DNA of 64,000 nucleotides from Bombella dulcis (GTDB lineage: Bacteria; Pseudomonadota; Alphaproteobacteria; Acetobacterales; Acetobacteraceae): the NCBI RefSeq assembly GCF_026385505.1, contig NZ_JANIDV010000001.1, positions 310,001-374,000 on the forward strand, written 5' to 3'. Under the pieces are notes generated by a model. The model ran no database searches and was not told the DNA's origin. It saw only the letters and a list, made by a program, of their open reading frames with translations. The translations under genes and the position numbers were made by a program. This document shows positions 35,496 through 48,534 of this stretch, in pieces (position 1 is the stretch's first letter; every line of letters begins with the position of its first letter).

Positions 35496-37463
35496 TCATG
35501 GGCTGGGTAGAAGGGCATAAAGGGACATGTCTGCTTCAATATGCTCGATGTAAAGCCGGGTCTCCTTGTAAGGGATCAGCAGAAGCCAGCGTAACAGGGT
35601 GTCTTCGTCTTCCGGGCCGGGGGAGGCCGGGCTGTTCATCTGCTCCTGCCACTGCCGGGAGCGTGTCGGGCCTGCATTATAGGCAGCCAATGCATAGGGG
35701 AGGACATGGCCGAAGCGGGTATGGAGGTCCTCCATGAAGAAGCTGCCGATTGTTGTATTGACGTTGGGGTCCAGCAGGTCGAGAGGTCCTGTCAGCGTGT
35801 AGGGCAGGTTGTGGCGTCGGGCCGTCTGTATGGCGGTGGGGAGCAGAAGCTGGGTCAGCCCCAGCGCATGACGGGGGCTGACAGCAAACTCATCCATGCT
35901 GCTTTCCTGCCGGATGAGGGCAGGCATGAGGCCATTGGGCAGGGATGTGGGAATCATGACACTGGAGGCGGGGTAGCCGTCAGGATAAAAAGCGATGCCC
36001 TGCCGTGCCAGCTGACGGGCCACCAGAATGGCTGCCTTGGGCAGATGAAGTGATCGGGCCAGTCGGGCAATGGCGATCTGGCCATCCCGGTCATTCTGGG
36101 TACGTCCCTGAAGATAGGTCAGGAAGAGGGTTGCATTGATCAGATCCCCCGAATTCTGGAGCCGCGTGGCGGCATCCATCAGATCGGGCCGGGGGCGTGA
36201 CTGTCCACCCGTCACGGGCGGAAGGGCCGCCAGCCGCTGCTTCAGGGCCGCCAGAAACTGTGAATCCCGCTGGCTCGTGGAGAGAAAGGGGCTGTGGTTC
36301 AGGTGCGCCAGAGCCAGCTGCCCGTAAAAGGTCGTGGGGAGAGCGGAAGCTTTCCTGTAGAAGGAGGCGGCCTGATCGGGGTGACGGCCTTCCAGTGTCC
36401 GGGCCATCCAGTAGAGACCGGTGGCACGCTGGTTCAGGTCCGCTGCCGAGGCGAGTATCTGGAAATGTGAGGCCGCCCTGTCAGGGTCATGCAGCCGCAT
36501 GAGGGCGACATGGCCTGCCAGCAGGTGGCTGTCCGGCGTCTGTTCCGTTGCCGGGATGGCATCCAGCAGGGCAAGGCCGGTCTGAGCTGCGTCACTTCTG
36601 CCGGTACGGAGCAGGGCACGGACGAACGCCGTCCGTTCATCCTGCCATTGCAGGCTGGTCGGTGGCGAGAGGGCCGTAATGGCGTTTCCGGGCAGGGGCT
36701 GCTGCCAGAGCGGGATGGCCTCATCCAGCCGGTCATGAAGCCGGAGATAGCGCAGCCGGTAATAGAGCAGGAAGGCGTCACGGGTGGAGGCACTGTTCTG
36801 GAAGGCTGCATCAGCACTGGCCGTGGCAAAATGGTTAGCCAGACGTGCTGCCAGGAGCGGCCTCAGCGTAGGTGGCGTTCTCTGAAGCTGCTGCTGGGCA
36901 GCGGCGAGCGGCCCCGTACGTTCCAGCCTTCCATAGCGTTTCAATTCATCATCTGGGGTCAGGAAGGAGGCGAAGCGGGACAGGAAAAGGCGGCTTTCAC
37001 TGGCATCCATGTCCGTTTCCTGCCAGAGCCGTCGGGCCTGCGTGGCAGGAGCGGGCAGGAAGGGGGCGCAGGCCGCCAGAAGATCACTGCGTATGATGGG
37101 AAAGAGAGGACAGAGTGACTGGCGTGCTTGGGGATCGGGAGTGGCCAGAAGGGCACGTTCATAGCGGCTGCTGATCCGTTTCTCCAGCGGCCATCCAGGC
37201 TGCAGCCGGAGGAAGGCGGCATAGCGTTGTGCGGGATAGCTGCCTCCATCCGGAGCGGTCAGGGCTTTCCATTCATCAAACCGGGACGGTGATGGCAGGG
37301 TGGATGCCGGTGTGGTCAGGCCAAGCTCCTCTTCTAGAGACGTGTCCGCATCTCCACAGGCGGTTGCGGCCGGACAGACAGCACTGAAAGCCATAAGGAG
37401 AGCAGCTCCTGCCCGGCGGGGGCTTTTCAGGAATTCAGGCAGCGTGCTGGAAGACGATTTCAT
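35496..37463 (-). CDS. slt: Soluble lytic murein transglycosylase (Slt-type)
   Basis: This 655-residue periplasmic enzyme cleaves peptidoglycan glycan strands, forming anhydromuropeptides. An N-terminal hydrophobic export segment (about residues 18-35) is followed by a long alpha-helical superhelix region as in Slt70. The C-terminal SLT domain has the catalytic glutamate in LIRQESSMDEFAVSPRHALGLTQLL and a conserved AYNAGPTRSRQW. The first ATG lies inside the end of terC, overlapping it by 29 bp. The signal peptide ends in ATAC, so lipoprotein processing is a possible alternative. Confidence 0.9.
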   Translation of the reverse strand: MKSSSSTLPEFLKSPRRAGAALLMAFSAVCPAATACGDADTSLEEELGLTTPASTLPSPSRFDEWKALTAPDGGSYPAQRYAAFLRLQPGWPLEKRISSRYERALLATPDPQARQSLCPLFPIIRSDLLAACAPFLPAPATQARRLWQETDMDASESRLFLSRFASFLTPDDELKRYGRLERTGPLAAAQQQLQRTPPTLRPLLAARLANHFATASADAAFQNSASTRDAFLLYYRLRYLRLHDRLDEAIPLWQQPLPGNAITALSPPTSLQWQDERTAFVRALLRTGRSDAAQTGLALLDAIPATEQTPDSHLLAGHVALMRLHDPDRAASHFQILASAADLNQRATGLYWMARTLEGRHPDQAASFYRKASALPTTFYGQLALAHLNHSPFLSTSQRDSQFLAALKQRLAALPPVTGGQSRPRPDLMDAATRLQNSGDLINATLFLTYLQGRTQNDRDGQIAIARLARSLHLPKAAILVARQLARQGIAFYPDGYPASSVMIPTSLPNGLMPALIRQESSMDEFAVSPRHALGLTQLLLPTAIQTARRHNLPYTLTGPLDLLDPNVNTTIGSFFMEDLHTRFGHVLPYALAAYNAGPTRSRQWQEQMNSPASPGPEDEDTLLRWLLLIPYKETRLYIEHIEADMSLYALLPSP

Positions 37464-38073
37464 GATAGCCCAGAAAGAAGAGATGAAGGCTGAGGCCTAT
37501 CATGATGATGAATCCAAACCAACCTAGCCAGCGCATGCGCAGCAGCAGGGCCGGGGTGTGCATGACGCCAAGGGTGATGACCAGAATGGAGACGACCAGC
37601 CCGATGATGAGAATGGCGTGATGGTAGATGGAGAGGCAGGCAATGGCGAGAATGTTGTCCAGCCCCAGGGCAAGGTCCGCAATGATGATTTTCGGTATGG
37701 CCTCGGCCAGACTCGTGGAATGGCTGCTCTCGTCATCAGGGTCGGGAGAGGTGAGGGCACGGAAGAGGGACCAGCTCGTCCATAACAGGAGAAAGCCCGC
37801 CACGATCTTGGTGTAGGAGAAGATGAGGAGATCGCTGAGAATCAGCGTCAGCCCGATCCGCAGGAAAGCCGCCAGAGCCGTGCCGAACATCAGGGCCTGC
37901 CGTCTGTATTTCCGCAGTTCCGCCTTGGCCAGAGGAGAGTGGAAGTCTTCGTCCAGTCTGGTTGGTCTTATGCTGTCCACGATCTTCTTGAGGATGATCA
38001 CGTTATAGCCGCTGAGGGACAGATTCAGAAGAATGGTCAGGAAGATCAGCAGAATGAAGTTGAGAAAAGGCAT
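37435..38073 (-). CDS. TerC-family integral membrane protein
   Basis: This 212-residue protein has about six hydrophobic segments. The signature LNLSLSGYNVIILKKIV near the start and ADLALGLDNILAIACLS in the second half are the paired acidic TerC motifs. Family members have been tied to tellurite resistance and manganese export or metal handling; the role here is not known. It overlaps the slt start by 29 bp on the same strand. It is divergent from purB. Confidence 0.88.
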   Translation of the reverse strand: MPFLNFILLIFLTILLNLSLSGYNVIILKKIVDSIRPTRLDEDFHSPLAKAELRKYRRQALMFGTALAAFLRIGLTLILSDLLIFSYTKIVAGFLLLWTSWSLFRALTSPDPDDESSHSTSLAEAIPKIIIADLALGLDNILAIACLSIYHHAILIIGLVVSILVITLGVMHTPALLLRMRWLGWFGFIIMIGLSLHLFFLGYHEIVFQHAA

Positions 38074-38296
38074 GGCCGTACTATGGATTACAGTCTCTGA
38101 TATTTACTGTTACGCTGGACCATATAGACGGAAAAGGGTCTAAATGTGGAGAAATGATCATCACCTGAAAGGTTTCTGAAAGATTTTCTGGTTTATGCCC
38201 TTGCGAAAGCAGGTCCATTCTCCTTAACAGCTCTGGGCAAAAGGGTACCATTTGGGGTAATCAAGGCTGGATTGCTTTTCCTGCAGGAGTTACGTC

Positions 38297-39628
38297 ATGG
38301 TTCCCCGCTACGCGCGCCCCCGGATGACGGCCATCTGGTCCCCTGTCAACCGTTACCGCATCTGGTTCGAGATCGAGGCTCTGGCCTGTGAGGCTCTTGC
38401 CCGCAGGGGGGAGATTCCGGCAGAGGCGGCGAAGGTCATCCGTACCAGGGGTGATGCGGCCATGGCGGCATTTTCCGAAGCGGACGTGGCCCGGATCGAC
38501 GAGATCGAAGCGGAAACCCGTCATGATGTCATTGCCTTCCTGACATGGCTGGCCGAGAAGGTCGGGCCGGAGAGCCGTTTTGTCCATATGGGCATGACCT
38601 CTTCCGACGTTCTGGATACCTGCCTTGCCGTCCAGTTGACACAGGCCACGGACATTCTCCTGGAGGACATGGACACTCTTCTCCTTGCGCTGAAGACCCG
38701 TGCCCATGAGCATAAGCATACAGTCACCATCGGGCGCAGTCACGGCATTCATGCAGAGCCGATGAGCTTCGGCCAGAAACTGGCCGGTCACTATGCCGAA
38801 TTTGCTCGCAACCGCCGTCGGCTTGAAATGGCCCGTGAGGAAATCGCCGTCTGTGCCATTTCCGGTGCCGTGGGGACCTATGCCCATATCGCTCCGGAAG
38901 TGGAGGAATATGTGGCCAGCCATCTGGGGCTGAAGGCGGAGAGCGTGTCCACGCAGGTGATTCCCCGTGACCGTCATGCGGCCTATTTCTGTGCCCTTGG
39001 CGTGATTGCCAGCGGGATCGAGCGTCTGGCGACGGAAGTGCGTCATCTCCAGCGTTCCGAAGTGCGTGAGGCTGAAGAGTTCTTCCATGCCGGGCAGAAG
39101 GGCAGCTCGGCGATGCCGCACAAGCGGAACCCGGTCCTGTCCGAGAATCTGACGGGGCTGGCCCGCCTCATCCGCTCCTATGTCACACCGGCACTGGAGA
39201 ACGTGGCTCTCTGGCACGAGCGTGACATCAGCCATTCCTCCGTGGAACGAAACATCTGCCCGGATGGCACGATCACGCTGGATTTCGCTCTGGCCCGTCT
39301 CTCCGGCATGATGGAGAATCTGGTGGTCTATCCGGACCAGATGATTGCCAATGTGGAGGGCCTTGGCGGTGTGGTCCATTCCGGCGAGGTGCTGCTGGTG
39401 CTGGCCCGTGCGGGCATTTCCCGTGAGGACGCATACCGTATCGTCCAGCGTGCCGCCATGGCGACATGGACGAAGCTGGGCACGCCGGAGGGCCGGACTT
39501 TCCGTGAAAATCTGGAGGCTGACCCGGATGTCGCCGGGCGGGTTGAGAAGGCCGTGTTGGATGATGCGCTGAACCCGGCCCGTCATCTGCGTGCTGTGGA
39601 CCAGATTTTCGCCCGCGTTTTTGGCTGA
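38297..39628 (+). CDS. purB: Adenylosuccinate lyase
   Basis: This 443-residue enzyme acts twice in purine synthesis, cleaving SAICAR and adenylosuccinate. The fumarase-superfamily signature GSSAMPHKRNP, the TSSDVLDTC segment and the GRSHGIHAEP histidine motif are present. Length matches the short PurB form of alphaproteobacteria. GGAG lies 6-10 nt before the ATG. A 223-bp gap separates it from terC, and purC follows after a hairpin. Confidence 0.97.
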   Translation: MVPRYARPRMTAIWSPVNRYRIWFEIEALACEALARRGEIPAEAAKVIRTRGDAAMAAFSEADVARIDEIEAETRHDVIAFLTWLAEKVGPESRFVHMGMTSSDVLDTCLAVQLTQATDILLEDMDTLLLALKTRAHEHKHTVTIGRSHGIHAEPMSFGQKLAGHYAEFARNRRRLEMAREEIAVCAISGAVGTYAHIAPEVEEYVASHLGLKAESVSTQVIPRDRHAAYFCALGVIASGIERLATEVRHLQRSEVREAEEFFHAGQKGSSAMPHKRNPVLSENLTGLARLIRSYVTPALENVALWHERDISHSSVERNICPDGTITLDFALARLSGMMENLVVYPDQMIANVEGLGGVVHSGEVLLVLARAGISREDAYRIVQRAAMATWTKLGTPEGRTFRENLEADPDVAGRVEKAVLDDALNPARHLRAVDQIFARVFG

Positions 39629-39635
39629 AGGTCAT

Positions 39636-39658
39636 GACCGGGGGCATTTCCCCCGGTC
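39636..39658 (+). terminator. Hairpin downstream of purB
   Basis: GACCGGGGG (39636-39644) pairs with CCCCCGGTC (39650-39658) around a 5-nt loop. Only a short TGATCT follows, so termination may be partial, letting some transcripts continue into the purC operon. Confidence 0.6.
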
Positions 39659-39741
39659 TGATCTCAGGCTCGTATAAAGGCATCTGGCTGTGGTAAGATA
39701 CACGGATGGCCTGATAGGTGCATCGAGTAAGGATTGAATGT

Positions 39742-40506
39742 ATGGCTCGCCGTCGTCAGATTTATGAGGGAAAAGCCAAGATCATCTATGAAGGACCGGA
39801 ACCGGGAACGGTGGTTCAGTATTTCAAGGATGATGCGACAGCCGGTAACGGGGCCAAGAGTGGCGTCATTACGGGCAAGGGCGTTCTCAACAACCGGATC
39901 AGCGAATATCTGATGCAGCGTCTGGGGGAGCTGGGCATTCCCACGCACTTCATCCGCAGCCTGAACATGCGTGAGCAGCTGGTGCGGGAAGTGGAGATCA
40001 TCCCTCTGGAGGTCGTGGTCCGCAATGTCGTGGCAGGGTCCCTGTCCAAGCGTTTCGGTCTGCCGGAAGGCGAGCGTCTGTCCCGCACTCTTGTGGAATA
40101 TTACTACAAGAATGATGAACTGAATGACCCGCTGATCTCTGAGGAGCATATCGTCACGTTCGGCTGGGCACATCCGCAGGAGCTGGAAGAAATCCAGAGC
40201 CTTGCATTGCGGGTTAATGATTTTCTCTGTGGGCTGTTCACTGGTGTCGGCATCACTCTGGTGGACTTCAAGCTGGAGTTTGGCCGTCTCTGGCAGGGCG
40301 ATGAAATGCGGATCGTGCTGGCTGATGAGATTTCACCAGACAACTGCCGCCTGTGGGACAGCCGGACACGGGAGAAAATGGACAAGGACCGGTTCCGCCG
40401 GGACATGGGGGGCGTGGGCGAAGCCTATCAGGAAGTCGCACGCCGTCTTGGCATCCTTCCGGAGAACGGGCAGAGTGAGAACGTATCTGCAGAAGGTGTA
40501 CAATGA
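39742..40506 (+). CDS. purC: SAICAR synthetase
   Basis: This 254-residue enzyme joins CAIR and aspartate. The N-terminus [15 protein letters not shown], the [18 protein letters not shown] nucleotide-binding stretch and LVDFKLEFG...[12 protein letters not shown] are typical. The ATG at 39742 has AAGGA about 9 nt upstream; the frame is open 8 codons further back without family support. Its stop overlaps the purS ATG by 4 bp, starting a coupled purC-purS-unknown-purQ-purL series. Confidence 0.96.
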
Positions 40507-40745
40507 AAGTCAGGGTTTTTGTTTCTCTGAAGGAAGGTGTTCTGGATCCGCAGGGCAAGGCGGTGGAACATGCGCTGCACTCTCTCGGTTTTGAGGGAGC
40601 GTCCGATGTGCGGATCAGCCGTGTGGTGGACCTGCACGTGAAGGCTGAGAATGCCGAGGCAGCCAGGAAGAAGGGCGAGGAGATGGCACGTGCCCTTCTG
40701 GCCAACGAAGTGATTGAAGATTTTTATGTGGAGGTAATCGTATGA
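40503..40745 (+). CDS. purS: Phosphoribosylformylglycinamidine synthase subunit PurS
   Basis: This 80-residue protein is PurS, the small subunit that holds PurQ and the small PurL together in the FGAM synthase complex. [24 protein letters not shown] is the family N-terminus. It overlaps purC by 4 bp at its start and the next gene by 4 bp at its end. Presence of PurS fits the short PurL at 42199. Confidence 0.95.
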
Positions 40746-41497
40746 AACTCATTCGACAGACAGGGCGGGTTTTTCTGTTGGGCATGGTCTGCATGTTCTT
40801 GGGCACGACGGCTCATGCACAACGTATTTCTTCCATCTCTGGTGTGGAGTTGGGTGATCTCTGTCGAAAAGAGTCCAAGCGTGAGGCCTGCGGTTCCTAC
40901 CTAGCAGGTGTGATGGATGGTGCCGCCTGGTCTCAGAGTTTTGGCTCGCTTGTGGGATCCCGTCCGGCAACGGCTTTTTGCTTGCCCGCAGGAATTAAGG
41001 GTGCGCAGGTGCGTGCTCTTATGGTTGGCTGGTTGGCTGGGCATGAGGCTGTGGCTAGTCAGCCTGCTGGGCGCGCTGTCTATCAGGCTCTGCATGACAA
41101 TTACGCCTGTCCGACAGGAATGGCCGGCATGTATGTCGAACAGCATGCTGAAGCTCAGAGCATTTCTTCTTTGTCAGGTCGTGCTTTGGTCTCCATGTGT
41201 ACGCACGAGAATGGCCTTTTGGCCTGTGACGGCTATCTGGCTGGAACGATGGACAGCGAGGTCTGGGCGCGCAATTACTCCACGGTTGAGGGTGTGCATA
41301 TGCCAGTGGCTTTTTGCGTACCGAAGGAAGTTCGTGGGTCGCAGCTACGAGCACTGGTTGTCGGGTGGTATGCTGGCCATGACGATGCTCTGAACGAGCC
41401 TGCCGGTCGTGGCATTTATCGTGCGTTGCGTGCTAATTATCCATGCTCCTCTACAATTCAGTCTATTATCCCGCTGCAGTCAGGGGGTAGAAGGTAA
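40742..41497 (+). CDS. Secreted protein with two tandem Rap1a/Tai-like domains
   Basis: This 251-residue protein has a signal peptide (cleavage after AHA at about residue 26) and two homologous halves of about 95 residues (about 28-122 and 140-234). Each half has four cysteines in the same order: one after the leading SxSG segment, one before the G-Y-L-A-G motif, one in the FCxP motif and one at the end of the domain. The G-Y-L-A-G-x-M-D, FCxP and VGWxAGH motifs resemble Rap1a/Tai immunity proteins, which protect against type VI secreted amidases, and related periplasmic proteins of unknown role. It overlaps purS by 4 bp and precedes purQ by 3 nt, yet an exported protein has no evident place in purine synthesis. 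Codons look less GC-biased than its neighbours. Confidence 0.75.
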   Translation: MKLIRQTGRVFLLGMVCMFLGTTAHAQRISSISGVELGDLCRKESKREACGSYLAGVMDGAAWSQSFGSLVGSRPATAFCLPAGIKGAQVRALMVGWLAGHEAVASQPAGRAVYQALHDNYACPTGMAGMYVEQHAEAQSISSLSGRALVSMCTHENGLLACDGYLAGTMDSEVWARNYSTVEGVHMPVAFCVPKEVRGSQLRALVVGWYAGHDDALNEPAGRGIYRALRANYPCSSTIQSIIPLQSGGRR

Positions 41498-41500
41498 TAA

Positions 41501-42199
41501 ATGAAAGCAGGTATTGTCGTTTTCCCGGGCACCAACCGGGAGCGCGACATGGCTCAGGCCTTCCGGGTTGTATCCGGCAAGACACCACAGATGCTCTGGC
41601 ATCAGCAGGATAATGTCGATGGGTTTGACCTGATCGTTCTCCCCGGTGGCTTCAGCTTCGGTGACTATCTCCGCAGCGGGGCCATGGCGGCTCATTCGCC
41701 CATCATGAAGGCCGTACGCCGTTTTGCCGAAAAGGGCGGCTATGTCCTCGGTGTCTGCAACGGCTTCCAGATTCTGACGGAAGCCCAAATGCTGCCGGGT
41801 GCGCTCCTGCGTAATGCGGGCATGCGCTTCCTGTCTCAGGACTGCCACCTGAAGGTGGAAGGCCGGGACAGCATCTTCACGTCCGGCTGGACGCATGGGG
41901 ATGTCTTCCGTGCGCCCATGGCCCATGGGGATGGCAATTATACTGCCGCCCCCGAGGTGCTGGACCGTCTGGAAGGTGAGGGCCGGGTGGCCTTCCGCTA
42001 CTGTACGGCGGAAGGGCATATGAAGGACAGCGACGAGCATGTGAACATGAATGGCAGTGCCCGTTCCATTGCTGGTGTTCTGAGCGAGAACCGTCGTGTC
42101 TGTGGTCTCATGCCGCATCCTGAAAATCTGACGGAAGAGATTCTGAGTGGTACGGATGGTCTGCCGCTCTTTACCGGGATCATGGAGGCATTGGGCTGA
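41501..42199 (+). CDS. purQ: Phosphoribosylformylglycinamidine synthase subunit PurQ
   Basis: This 232-residue class I glutamine amidotransferase delivers ammonia to PurL. The nucleophile is in [11 protein letters not shown], the N-terminal [17 protein letters not shown] and the terminal MPHPENL histidine motif are standard. The purL ATG overlaps the last base of its stop codon. It begins 3 nt after the tandem Rap1a-like gene. Confidence 0.96.
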
Positions 42200-44439
42200 T
42201 GACAGCAGCACATGTTGATATTGAGCTTGCACGCTCTTTCGGCCTGAAAGATGACGAGTACGAGACCGTCCTGACCATCATGGGGCGGACGCCGAGCCTG
42301 ACGGAGCTTGGCATTTTCTCCGTCATGTGGTCGGAGCACTGCTCTTACAAGTCATCCCGTCTCCATCTCAAGACACTGCCGACCAAGGCTCCCTGGGTCA
42401 TTCATGGCCCGGGCGAGAATGCCGGCGTGATCGACATTGGGGAAGGTCTGGCCGCCGTCTTCAAGATGGAGAGCCATAATCATCCATCATTTATCGAACC
42501 CTATCAGGGAGCGGCCACGGGTGTTGGTGGTATCCTGCGTGACGTGTTCACGATGGGTGCCCGCCCCATTGCCAACCTGAACGCCCTGCGTTTCGGTGAT
42601 CCGTCTCACAAGGACACAAAGCGTGTCGTGGATGGTGTCGTCCGTGGGATTGGCGGTTACGGCAACTGCATGGGTGTGCCGACGGTTGGTGGGGAGGTGA
42701 ATTTCCACCACTCCTACAACTGCAATCCGCTGGTCAATGCGATGACGGTCGGGCTGGCCCGGCAGGATCGCATCTTCCTGTCTGCTGCGGCAGGTGTGGG
42801 CAATCCGGTCGTGTATGTCGGCTCCAAGACGGGGCGTGATGGCATCCACGGGGCCACGATGTCCTCCGCCGAGTTTGATTCAGAGTCCAGCTCCAAGCGG
42901 CCGACCGTGCAGGTGGGCGACCCCTTCACCGAGAAGCTGCTTCTGGAAGCCTGCCTCGAACTGATGGCCACTGATGCGGTGATCTCCATTCAGGACATGG
43001 GGGCCGCCGGCCTGACTTCGTCCGCCGTGGAGATGGCCAGTAAGGGCGGGGTCGGGATTGACCTGGACCTGGACCACGTTCCGCAGCGTGAAGCCAACAT
43101 GCAGGCTTACGAGATGATGCTCTCGGAAAGTCAGGAGCGTATGCTCATGGTGCTGCGTCCGGACCGGACGGAAGAAGCACGCAGGATTTTCGAGAAGTGG
43201 GAACTGGATTTTGCCATTGTCGGCAGGCTGACTGACAGCGGGCGGATCACGGTACGGCATAACGGGAAGGTCGAGGCGGATATTCCGCTTGGTCCGCTGG
43301 CTGATGAAGCCCCGATCTATGACCGTCCGACCATGGAGTATGAGCGTCAGCCTGCTCTGGTGCCGCCTGCTGATCCATGCGGCATCGAGAAGGGGCTGCT
43401 CCGTCTTCTGGCCAGTGCCAATGGGGCTTCCCGGGCATGGATATGGAACCAGTATGACAGTGGCGTTGGTGGTCAGACCGTCCAGCGTCCGGGTGGTGCA
43501 GATGCCGCCATCGTCCGGGTGGAGGGCACGGATCGTGGCCTCGCCATGACGACGGACTGCACGCCCCGTTACGGGCAGGCCGATCCTTATGTTGGCGGTG
43601 CCCAGGCCGTGCTGGAAGTGTGGCGTAACTTGACGGCCACGGGGGCAAAGCCTCTGGCCATGACGGATAACCTCAACTTTGCCAGCCCGGAAAATCCGCG
43701 CATCATGACGCAGTTTGTCGAGGCCGTGAGAGGCATTGGTGATGCTGGCCGTGCGCTGGATTTCCCGGTCGTCAGTGGCAATGTGTCCCTGTATAATGAA
43801 ACCCGTGGTGATGACGGTTCGGTGACGGCCATCCAGCCAGCCCCCGTGATCGGTGGCGTGGGTGTTCTTGAGGACGTCCGGAAGGCTGTCGGTCTGGCCA
43901 TGCCGCAGGATGGCGAGCTGCTTCTGGTCGGTGAGACCTGGGGTGAGCTGGGGCAGTCCATGTGGCTGAAGGAAATTCTCGGCCGTGAGGAGGGTGCTCC
44001 TCCAGCCGTTGATTTCGCTGCCGAGCGTCGGAATGGTGATTTCGTACGTGAGCAGATTCAGGGTGGGGCCGTTCTGGCCTGTCATGACGTGTCTGACGGC
44101 GGTCTCATTGTTGCGCTGGCCGAGATGGCCATGGCAGGCAATGTGGGCTGCGTGCTGGATGTGGCTCCCGCTGCCCTGCCTGAGCATATTTACTGGTTCG
44201 CCGAGGATCAGGCCCGGTATGTTCTGGCAACCAGACAGGCTGATGCCGTGATGAAGGCGGCGCAGGAGGCTGGTGTGCCGGTACGCCGTCTGGGGCGTGC
44301 TGGTGGTGACGTGCTGGAACTTGGCGATGTCATGGCGGTGCCTGTCCAGCATCTGCGCAGGCAGCACGCTTCATTCTTCCCCCGTTTCATGGGGAAGGAA
44401 GAGGATGCTCCGGTCGTGCATCTGGATGAAATATCCTGA
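42199..44439 (+). CDS. purL: Phosphoribosylformylglycinamidine synthase subunit PurL (small form)
   Basis: This 746-residue PurL is the short class that requires PurS and PurQ, consistent with both genes lying upstream. It shows [34 protein letters not shown], and a second AIRS-type half with [20 protein letters not shown]. It makes FGAM from FGAR with ATP and glutamine-derived ammonia. Length and motif order are normal. Confidence 0.97.
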
Positions 44440-44466
44440 AAGAGCGGAGAGAAGGAGGTTTCGACC

Positions 44467-44697
44467 ATGATGACGGCAGAAGAGATTGAAAAGACCCTCC
44501 GGGGGGCCTTTCCTGATGCAGAGATTGTGGTTGAAGACCTCGCAGGTGACGGTGATCACTTTGCCTGTGAGGTCGTCAGCGAAAGATTCCGTGGCGTGCC
44601 ACGGGTAAAGCAGCATAAGCTGGTTTATGAAGCCTTCGGGAGCCGTGTCGGTACGGAGCTTCATGCTCTTGCCGTGAAGACACGGACACCTGACTGA
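44467..44697 (+). CDS. BolA-family protein
   Basis: This 76-residue protein fits the BolA/IbaG family (EEIEKTLRGAFPDAEIVVEDLAGDGDHFACEVVSERFRGVPRVKQHKLVY...), with the helix-turn-helix-like KxxxHxxV segment. BolA proteins form [2Fe-2S] complexes with monothiol glutaredoxins, and such a glutaredoxin gene follows directly, so a shared role in iron-sulfur handling is likely. A GGAGG lies about 10 nt before the ATG. Confidence 0.92.
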   Translation: MMTAEEIEKTLRGAFPDAEIVVEDLAGDGDHFACEVVSERFRGVPRVKQHKLVYEAFGSRVGTELHALAVKTRTPD

Positions 44698-44715
44698 TTG
44701 AAAGGACATGCTCAG

Positions 44716-45051
44716 ATGAGTGATGCTGTTTTCCAGACCATCCAGTCCCTCGTGGACAGGAACCCCATCATGCTTTTCATGAAGGGGGACAAGCAGTTCC
44801 CGCAGTGCGGGTTCTCCGCCCGTGTCGTGCAGATTCTCAACCATCTCGGGGTGGAATTCGAGACGGAGAACGTGCTTGAGAGTGCAGAGATGCGCCAGGG
44901 CATCAAGGATTTCTCCCAGTGGCCGACAATCCCGCAGCTTTATGTGAAGGGTGAGTTCATCGGTGGCTGTGACATTGTCACGGACATGTATCAGAGCGGT
45001 GAACTGGAAAGCCTGCTGTCAGAAAAAGGCCTGCTGAAACACGCTGGCTGA
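44716..45051 (+). CDS. grxD: Monothiol glutaredoxin (Grx4/GrxD type)
   Basis: This 111-residue protein has the CGFS active site (FPQCGFSARV) and the glutathione-binding WPTIPQLYVKGEFIGGCDIV segment of class II monothiol glutaredoxins, which carry [2Fe-2S] clusters. I start it at the ATG at 44716, with AAAGGA about 10 nt upstream; a TTG six codons earlier begins right after the bolA stop. The bolA-grxD pairing supports iron-sulfur trafficking. Confidence 0.95.
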   Translation: MSDAVFQTIQSLVDRNPIMLFMKGDKQFPQCGFSARVVQILNHLGVEFETENVLESAEMRQGIKDFSQWPTIPQLYVKGEFIGGCDIVTDMYQSGELESLLSEKGLLKHAG

Positions 45052-45212
45052 TATCCGGGGGATGGGCCTTCATCAAATAAATGCCTTGCCAGCTGGCCTG
45101 TGACATTGCTTTCTGTCGCGTGGCGTGGTTAAACTGGCCATCATTTATCAGAGTGTAAGGTTCCATCCCTGCCAGCTTGTGGGGAGGGTGCGGCAATGGA
45201 GGGGGTAGTGAC

Positions 45213-45536
45213 ATGGTGAAATCCCTTAAGGGAGGGGTTCTTTTTGGGCTTCTGGGGTTTGCAGGGCTGGCATCTGCACCGGCAGCTCATGCGGATCGGG
45301 TTCTGACGGAACATGAGGCAAGCAAGCTGACATTCAGTGCGCTTATTGCTCCGCCGTCCGCATACTACCATCCGCCAGTGCGCCGTGTGCTTGGCCGCAG
45401 GCACGCTCCGGCTTTCCGTCTGGCTGCTGCAAAGCATGTGAGCCGTTTCCATCACGGTGTTACCGTGCGGACGGTGGCTTTCCATGGTCATGTTGTCAGC
45501 AAGCATCGCCGGAATACCCATCGTCATCGTGGGTGA
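45213..45536 (+). CDS. Small secreted basic His/Arg-rich protein
   Basis: I do not recognise this 107-residue protein. It has a Sec signal peptide (about residues 1-27, cleavage after AHA), and the mature part is rich in Arg and His (PPVRRVLGRRHAP, KHVSRFHHGV, HVVSKHRRNTHRHRG). There are no cysteines in the mature part. The ATG at 45213 follows a GGAGGG stretch about 10 nt upstream. It stands alone between grxD and convergent yraN. The strong positive charge suggests binding to an anionic surface or metal, but this is inference. Confidence 0.7.
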   Translation: MVKSLKGGVLFGLLGFAGLASAPAAHADRVLTEHEASKLTFSALIAPPSAYYHPPVRRVLGRRHAPAFRLAAAKHVSRFHHGVTVRTVAFHGHVVSKHRRNTHRHRG

Positions 45537-45606
45537 GATCATCTCATCCTGATGGAAGAAGGTGCCCCATAGGCCTAGCCTCATGGGGTTTCTTTTTGTC
45601 TGCCGT

Positions 45607-48534
<2,928 letters not shown>

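What the first reader, a model, noticed from the sequence alone, without database searches (positions are those of the whole stretch)
40742..41497. Exported tandem Rap1a-like protein embedded in the purine operon
Between purS and purQ, whose products form one complex with PurL, lies a signal-peptide protein with two Cys4 Rap1a/Tai-like halves. It overlaps purS by 4 bp and purQ by a 3-nt gap, so it is translated with the pathway. Rap1a-type proteins are known as immunity to type VI amidases, but none of that machinery is in the window. Either the gene moved in recently, or the family has a periplasmic role that benefits from purine-operon control.
Basis: partly seen in the sequence, partly recalled or inferred. 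Interest (0 to 1): 0.6.

Follow-up and report, generated by a model that had tools for sequence, protein, structure and literature searches.

The report
Old exported protein in purine operon
Between two purine-making genes of a bee-associated acetic acid bacterium sits a gene for an exported, cysteine-rich protein that resembles toxin-immunity proteins; it occupies this spot in many genera of its bacterial family, even where neighbouring purine genes are missing, so it is probably an old cell-envelope protein with a job of its own that is still unknown.

Summary
In detail: window 40742-41497 encodes a 251-aa protein with a signal peptide and two four-cysteine Rap1a (PF18602) domains, ATGA-overlapping purS and 3 nt before purQ. 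The genus is Bombella. 'Moved in recently' is rejected: a Rap1a gene fills the purS-purQ slot in 45 of 99 fetched loci (41 of 94 genera), 38 of 45 with the same 4-bp purS overlap, and in 26 of 26 rows of the window's cluster in a PurS+PurQ tree. Only Bombella has the tandem there. VipB (T6SS) is absent from 35 of 47 such genomes and Tae4 from 45 of 47, including all 6 Bombella. In two genomes PurS and full-length PurL are not found, yet the Rap1a gene remains in the leftover operon. Selection within Bombella is purifying. The fold is Rap1a/Tai4; two dimer-interface residues (Tyr, Asp) are kept in 42 of 43 domains each, while the effector-contact face differs. Best reading: an old periplasmic housekeeping protein, probably dimeric, expressed with growth, fused into a single-chain pseudo-dimer in Bombella. 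Its partner is unknown and no function is shown.

The parts
40742..41497 (+). Exported tandem Rap1a-domain protein (251 aa)
   Evidence: PF18602, 4e-32
40742..40819 (+). Signal peptide, residues 1-26, AHA|Q
   Evidence: read by eye; hydrophobic stretch before the first domain Cys in 45 of 45 slot homologues
40820..41143 (+). Rap1a domain 1 (C41, C50, C80, C123), the less conserved copy within the genus
41144..41494 (+). Rap1a domain 2 (C153, C162, C192, C235) with C-terminal tail
40742..40745 (+). ATGA start-stop overlap with purS; same 4-bp overlap in 38 of 45 slot homologues
40503..40745 (+). purS
41501..42199 (+). purQ
42199..44439 (+). purL
39718..40506 (+). purC

Best explanation
The gene encodes a periplasmic housekeeping protein of the Rap1a/Tai4a fold: a small five-helix module with four conserved cysteines that acts, probably as a dimer, by holding another envelope protein (as a binding or inhibiting partner). 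It is not an immunity protein of a resident type VI system and not a part of purine synthesis. It sits in the purS-purQ slot of many Acetobacteraceae as an old insertion, with start-stop overlaps that suggest coupled translation, so its amount should follow growth-linked purine demand. In Bombella an internal duplication fused two copies into one chain, probably a single-chain version of the dimer. Shown here: position, wide spread in the family, clustering of the slot proteins, purifying selection within Bombella, fold match, no VipB or Tae4 in Bombella, persistence where PurS and full-length PurL are not found. Inferred: export (by eye), disulfides, dimer state, growth coupling, protein-binding mode of action. 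Unknown: the partner.
For: Slot tally 45 of 99 loci, 41 of 94 genera; 26 of 26 rows in the window's cluster of the host tree; slot proteins cluster, 4 changes against 27.1 for shuffled labels. pN/pS 0.03-0.31 among six genomes of the genus. VipB in 12 and Tae4 in 2 of 47 genomes, both 0 of 6 in the genus. Genus g30, 2 of 2 genomes: no PurS, no PurL above cut-off, Rap1a kept next to a purC-like gene, with grxD following in G116 and bolA-grxD in G029. Fold: Foldseek's top 7 are all Rap1a/Tai4, probability 1.00, though their E-values are only 0.018-0.22; Z 10.2-11.2. Equivalents of the dimer residues Tyr64 and Asp70 in 42 of 43 each (residues from PMC3852654 section 3.4). Domains 1 and 2 form one clade each, as after one duplication before the six genomes split. 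Of 10 neighbours of non-slot Rap1a genes scanned one by one, none matched a T6SS family.
Against: No experiment shows any function. The same fold in two solved cases blocks an amidase, so an inhibitor or immunity role stays possible; 12 of 47 genomes do have VipB. Two other Rap1a dimer residues, Arg107 and Glu113, align to mostly Pro (28 of 43) and Phe/Tyr (26 of 43), though AtTai4, also a dimer, lacks them too; five more were not mapped. The gene evolves faster than purQ (pN/pS up to 0.31 against 0.09). 26 of 99 slots are empty and 19 hold another small protein, so the gene is dispensable in many genera. purQ was not searched for in the g30 genomes beyond the fetched locus. The tandem model is only moderate (pLDDT 72.8, pTM 0.73), so the pseudo-dimer is unproven.
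Confidence: 0.55

Rival explanations
1. Standing (orphan) immunity: the protein guards the periplasm against Tae4-type peptidoglycan amidases injected by neighbouring bacteria, kept without an effector of its own.
For: Rap1a/Tai4a fold; VipB in 12 and Tae4 in 2 of 47 related genomes, so possible attackers exist in the same family; the known function of the solved relatives is amidase neutralisation (PMC3852654; PMC6277958 passages).
Against: Wide, clustered retention in one operon; purifying selection within the genus, whereas the title and abstract of PMC12247911 describe orphan immunity genes as rapidly evolving, with changes at the effector interface. The place of catalytic-His-contacting Gln84 is mostly Thr (23 of 43; the six commonest residues, 38 of 43, include no Gln) and an Arg in 39 of 43 stands at the place of Gln89, though AtTai4 also lacks Gln84. 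A 2-Cys homologue of the same family (L189) matches solved AtTai4 at 4e-32 by single sequence; the window protein matches nothing that way up to E 1.
Confidence: 0.18
2. Inhibitor of the cell's own peptidoglycan hydrolase, throttling wall cutting in step with growth.
For: Solved relatives block an NlpC/P60-like amidase; a growth-linked operon would give proportional dosage (inference).
Against: NlpC/P60 enzymes (PF00877) are found in only 5 of 64 genomes searched and not in the window's genome, so the obvious target is missing. Other hydrolase families were not searched.
Confidence: 0.12
3. HdeA-like acid-stress chaperone of the periplasm, useful to bacteria that live in acid.
For: After Rap1a/Tai4 the next structural neighbour of the single-domain model is E. 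coli HdeA, Z 6.4, rmsd 3.5, 75 of its 79 residues, with the next row at Z 3.0.
Against: Z under about 13 for helical bundles may be only a common arrangement (note); Foldseek E 9.2; no profile relation; HdeA is not listed for the tandem model.
Confidence: 0.1
4. Recent insertion, misassembly or neutral passenger.
For: 26 of 99 slots are empty, so the operon works without it.
Against: Found in 41 of 94 genera with the same kind of overlap, pN/pS at most 0.31, retained in two genomes where PurS and full-length PurL are not found.
Confidence: 0.03

Closest known systems
Rap1a (SMA2260) of Serratia marcescens, Tai4a immunity, PDB 3zfi/4bi8
   Same: PF18602 domain, five-helix fold (Z 10.2-10.5), signal sequence, C3-C4 cysteine pair, dimer Tyr64 and Asp70
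   Different: Two further conserved cysteines (C1, C2) per domain here, while the paper passages report one disulfide for Rap1a; longer C2-C3 stretch (17-32 residues); no effector gene, no VipB, purine operon, tandem in Bombella
Tai4 of Agrobacterium tumefaciens (ATU4346), PDB 6ije/6ijf
   Same: Best fold match (Z 11.2) and best profile match (E 5e-6)
   Different: Paired with its Tae4; Ser at the place of C2 and one disulfide reported; the window protein has no direct sequence match
HdeA of E. coli, PDB 1dj8
   Same: Small exported helical protein; weak structural match covering 75 of 79 residues
   Different: No sequence relation found; two cysteines against four
2-Cys Tai4 homologue of an Acetobacteraceae genome, L189 3393-3758
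   Same: Same fold family by sequence, same bacterial family
   Different: Matches AtTai4 at 4e-32; lies outside the purine operon, overlapping a sugar-binding-domain regulator gene by 4 bp

Membership tests
Rap1a domain family PF18602 | Curated profile score above the gathering cut-off | tested here: met
   111 bits whole, about 58 bits each half, cut-off 27.7
Rap1a domain family PF18602 | Five-helix Rap1a/Tai4a fold | tested here: met
   Domain-2 model pLDDT 89 with five helices; top 7 Foldseek hits all Rap1a/Tai4, probability 1.00, E 0.018-0.22; Z 10.2-11.2 over 85-86 residues
Rap1a domain family PF18602 | Equivalents of the Cys78-Cys122 pair | tested here: met
   Both cysteines in 43 of 43 domains (mapping); bond formation itself not tested
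Rap1a domain family PF18602 | Dimer-interface residues of Rap1a | tested here: inconclusive
   Tyr64 and Asp70 kept in 42 of 43 each; Arg107 and Glu113 not kept, nor in AtTai4; five others not mapped
T6SS amidase immunity (Tai4/Tai4a) | Encoded with a cognate Tae4 amidase | tested here: not met
   No Tae4 (PF14113) in the window's genome or five congeners; 2 of 47 genomes in all, in neither beside the slot-type gene
T6SS amidase immunity (Tai4/Tai4a) | Resident type VI system | tested here: not met
   VipB (PF05943) absent from the window's genome and 34 more of 47; other T6SS genes not searched
T6SS amidase immunity (Tai4/Tai4a) | Effector-contact residues such as Gln84 | tested here: inconclusive
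   Mostly Thr at that place, 23 of 43; but solved AtTai4 has Ala there and is still said to neutralise (PMC6277958 passages)
T6SS amidase immunity (Tai4/Tai4a) | Neutralises a peptidoglycan amidase | not testable with these tools
   needs protein work
Purine biosynthesis accessory protein | Lost together with FGAM synthase genes | tested here: not met
   Retained in 2 of 2 genomes in which PurS and full-length PurL are not found; PurQ looked for only by reading the ORFs of the fetched locus
HdeA/HdeB acid chaperones | HdeA fold | tested here: inconclusive
   Z 6.4, rmsd 3.5, 75 of 79 residues; Foldseek E 9.2
HdeA/HdeB acid chaperones | Profile similarity | tested here: not met
   hhalign of A1 with E. 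coli HdeA aligns only 8 residues at the end of the signal peptide, probability 1.6%; single HdeA sequence, not a family profile

The most novel reading that the evidence does not exclude
The Rap1a/Tai4a fold is at root a housekeeping periplasmic dimer of Alphaproteobacteria, structurally near HdeA, from which type VI immunity proteins were recruited. The Acetobacteraceae purine-operon gene is the conserved, growth-coupled form of it, and Bombella made it a single-chain dimer.
Probability: 0.25. Interest if true: 0.7.

Novelty: new variant of a known kind. Interest (0 to 1): 0.5.

Why it matters
The family is named in Pfam for T6SS immunity. Here is a conserved, syntenic member in genomes that mostly lack VipB and Tae4, kept in two genomes where neighbouring FGAM synthase genes are not found. 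That makes a non-immunity role of the family directly testable in acetic acid bacteria, and warns against reading a PF18602 hit as evidence of interbacterial immunity. It is also a clear case of an exported protein encoded inside a core metabolic operon.

Tried and rejected
Recent insertion and assembly error: rejected by the family survey. Resident T6SS immunity: no VipB or Tae4 in the six genomes of the genus. Inhibitor of the cell's own NlpC/P60 enzymes: PF00877 absent from the window's genome and 58 more of 64. Spread of the arrangement outside the family: in the class survey of 142 genomes, 33 outside the family have Rap1a, 28 of these also PurS, and none has the two adjacent (nearest pair about 31 kb apart, G306). 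The order-level search drew 60 genomes, every one with the window's family code, so it added nothing outside.

Dead ends: NCBIfam gave nothing for P0001; PHROGs an unknown-function family, phrog_3870 at 2.4e-8, plus two weak ones; PADLOC one match at E 0.012, not used; single-sequence PDB search nothing up to E 1; no RNA family at gathering score in 37000-46500; promoter scan 5 found against 2.6 in shuffles, terminators 8 against 5.7; no DNA-level direct repeat inside the gene. The profile of the tandem alignment A2 was a poor PDB query, with Tai4 only at E 0.5. The tandem model hit Rap1a/Tai4 at Z 7.0-7.4, then rows such as aquaporins at Z 4.4 and below, many spanning both halves, which I do not interpret; HdeA is absent from that list. 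Neighbour tally of 141 genes near non-slot Rap1a genes: the 25 most frequent of 168 families include no T6SS component by name, but 143 families were not shown. Ten of those 141 were scanned one by one: ketol-acid reductoisomerase, a PTS EIIA protein, trypsin/PDZ, response regulator, lactamase-B fold, multihaem cytochrome, ParD antitoxin, sugar-binding regulator, and two without match; I chose them by position, so this is no unbiased sample.

Paper searches (open-access library only): 'Rap1a'+'Acetobacteraceae' 0 papers; 'Tai4'+'HdeA' 0; five Rap1a-family phrases 0; purS+purQ+Gluconobacter 1. I found nothing in print on this locus in those searches, no more than that.

Limits: the slot survey took about one genome per genus where a PurS position was listed, plus five of the window's genus and a second of g20; 9 of 99 slots are 'other', some because purQ was not found or the contig ended. 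The host tree dropped 7 loci without purQ; support is SH-aLRT only, and the root is at the midpoint. The wider Rap1a tree left out L191, L180 and the tandems except window domain 2, and is poorly resolved. Gene calls near non-slot genes are mechanical ORFs.

Full report
Observation. Both halves match Pfam Rap1a well above cut-off, E about 1.5e-15 each, and are 44% identical to each other. The operon reads purB-purC-purS-[Rap1a]-purQ-purL-bolA-grxD; PurS, PurQ and BolA were matched, PurC and PurL, and purB and grxD are named by sequence resemblance and position. The genome (1.87 Mb, 27 contigs) belongs with Bombella. The search of named genomes returned six relatives, five Bombella records and one unnamed Acetobacteraceae, at 79-86% identity. 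I call this genus code Bombella below.

It is an old insertion. I searched 249 genomes of the family for Rap1a and PurS: 186 have a Rap1a match and 231 a PurS; none of 14 control genomes has Rap1a. I then fetched purS loci, about one per genus plus five Bombella. Of 99 loci with purS, the purS-purQ slot holds a Rap1a gene in 45, nothing in 26, a small hydrophobic protein of 69-88 aa in 19, and something else or undetermined in 9. By genus this is 41 of 94. The Rap1a gene starts with a 4-bp overlap on purS in 38 of 45 and ends with a 4-bp overlap on purQ in 25 of 45, purQ not being found in 3. All 45 have a hydrophobic stretch before the first domain cysteine. Forty have one domain; the five with two are all Bombella. 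In a PurS+PurQ tree of 93 rows, the cluster that holds the window is Rap1a in 26 of 26 rows, 21 genera (SH-aLRT 85); in the other 67 rows it is 17 Rap1a, 26 empty, 19 small protein and 5 other. A tree of slot and non-slot Rap1a proteins groups the slot proteins (42 rows, 4 changes, shuffled mean 27.1) but is weakly resolved. This fits few origins, mostly vertical descent, with losses and replacements; a handful of separate insertions is not excluded. In the class survey of 142 genomes, 28 outside the family have both Rap1a and PurS and none has them adjacent.

It outlives neighbouring purine genes. Two genomes of one genus (g30) have no PurS match and no PurL above cut-off (G029 has a 24-bit partial match). 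Both keep the Rap1a gene behind a purC-like gene. In G116 the next listed gene on that strand is grxD (family matches), in G029 a bolA-like ORF and then grxD (named by eye). No purS, purQ or purL stands at either locus; PurQ was not searched for elsewhere in these genomes. So genes on both sides of the Rap1a gene went missing and it was kept. Its selected function is therefore unlikely to be FGAM synthesis.

It is under constraint. Among six Bombella genomes pN/pS is 0.03-0.31 for the Rap1a gene, 0.05-0.20 for purS and 0.01-0.09 for purQ; domain 2 is more conserved than domain 1, mean pN 0.071 against 0.124. Domains 1 and 2 form one clade each, as after one duplication before the six genomes split. 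Across 43 domains (40 single slot proteins, the g30 protein of G116 and both window halves) the four cysteines and one glycine are invariant.

It is not immunity of a resident type VI system. VipB is found in 12 and Tae4 in 2 of 47 genomes (window, five congeners, the other slot genomes except G178, and both g30 genomes); Bombella has neither. The two Tae4 genes lie elsewhere: one beside Hcp and a Sel1-repeat protein, one without T6SS genes noticed among the ORFs of the fetched 3.3 kb and itself with an apparent signal peptide. The wall-enzyme family that Tae4 resembles, NlpC/P60, is found in 5 of 64 genomes and not in the window's. Of 10 neighbours of non-slot Rap1a genes that I chose by position, none matched a T6SS family: they include ketol-acid reductoisomerase, a PTS EIIA protein, a trypsin/PDZ protein, a multihaem cytochrome and a ParD antitoxin.

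Fold and surface. A profile of the slot domains finds AtTai4 (5e-6) and Rap1a (3e-3) in the PDB. The domain-2 model (pLDDT 89) has Rap1a/Tai4 as its seven best Foldseek hits at probability 1.00, E 0.018-0.22, and Z 10.2-11.2. By the alignment, two residues that PMC3852654 lists for the Rap1a dimer, Tyr64 and Asp70, are kept in 42 of 43 each, with Gly67 between them in 43; two others, Arg107 and Glu113, are not (mostly Pro, and Phe or Tyr), nor are they in AtTai4, which is also a dimer; the rest were not mapped. The residue that contacts the effector's catalytic His, Gln84, is mostly Thr (23 of 43), and an Arg in 39 of 43 stands where Rap1a has Gln89 and AtTai4 Thr. I read sections 3.4 and 3.6 of PMC3852654, passages of it and passages of PMC6277958. 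As a control, a 2-Cys homologue elsewhere in the family (L189) hits AtTai4 at 4e-32 by single sequence, whereas the window protein has no hit up to E 1. AtTai4 has Ser at the place of C2, and for both solved immunity proteins the passages report one disulfide, C3-C4; the slot proteins carry four conserved cysteines. Since Rap1a and AtTai4 are dimers in crystals and in solution, a tandem chain is plausibly a covalent dimer; a second tandem outside the family (L180) suggests this happened more than once. The tandem model has pTM 0.73 but pLDDT 72.8, so I treat this as inference.

HdeA. The next structural neighbour after Rap1a/Tai4 is the acid chaperone HdeA, Z 6.4 over 75 of 79 residues, above the following row at 3.0. 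This is a lead only: helical bundles reach such Z by chance, a profile comparison shows nothing, and HdeA is not listed for the tandem model. Acetic acid bacteria live in acid (established knowledge), so a periplasmic client-holding role would make sense.

Conclusion. What it works like: most likely a periplasmic protein-binding module, probably dimeric. What it belongs to: the Rap1a domain family by profile and fold; it fails the defining context of T6SS immunity. Growth-coupled expression is inferred from the overlaps, not measured. In Komagataeibacter europaeus the FGAM synthase subunits are reported in proteome data (PMC9100681, passages); the terms Rap1a and immunity protein do not occur in that text.

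Noticed in passing
purS-purQ slots of 19 loci, e.g. L087, L098, L112, L113: A 69-88 aa hydrophobic protein (M-[IV]-K-x-S-L...GLRWREER...GGLHWLR) occupies the same slot in another branch of the family; one example has no Pfam match above cut-off.
   Followed up: partly
L130 3083-3820, L164 1903-2646: A purC-like gene (SAICAR synthetase match for L130) and purB-like sequence are kept in genomes where PurS and full-length PurL are not found; it may be decaying or reused.
   Followed up: partly
window 45177-45536; L130 1626-1976; L164 454-792: A basic ORF of 112-119 aa with an apparent signal peptide follows grxD in the window and in g30; the window and L130 copies have no Pfam match above cut-off.
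   Followed up: no
L139 1330-2001: A Tae4-like protein with an apparent signal peptide of its own; no Rap1a or T6SS gene noticed among the ORFs of the fetched 3.3 kb.
   Followed up: partly
L140 886-2646: Hcp-Tae4 pair with an exported-looking Sel1-repeat protein beside it, possibly a different kind of immunity partner.
   Followed up: partly
59 of 64 family genomes: NlpC/P60 (PF00877) peptidoglycan enzymes were not found in nearly all Acetobacteraceae searched.
   Followed up: partly
L172 3472-4913: A 2-Cys Rap1a gene 23 nt behind a ketol-acid reductoisomerase gene: another core-metabolism neighbour of this domain.
   Followed up: partly
L180 3487-4119: A second tandem Rap1a protein (210 aa) outside the family.
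   Followed up: partly
L191 3611-3868: Genome G013 has a near-copy of part of its slot Rap1a gene elsewhere in the chromosome.
   Followed up: no
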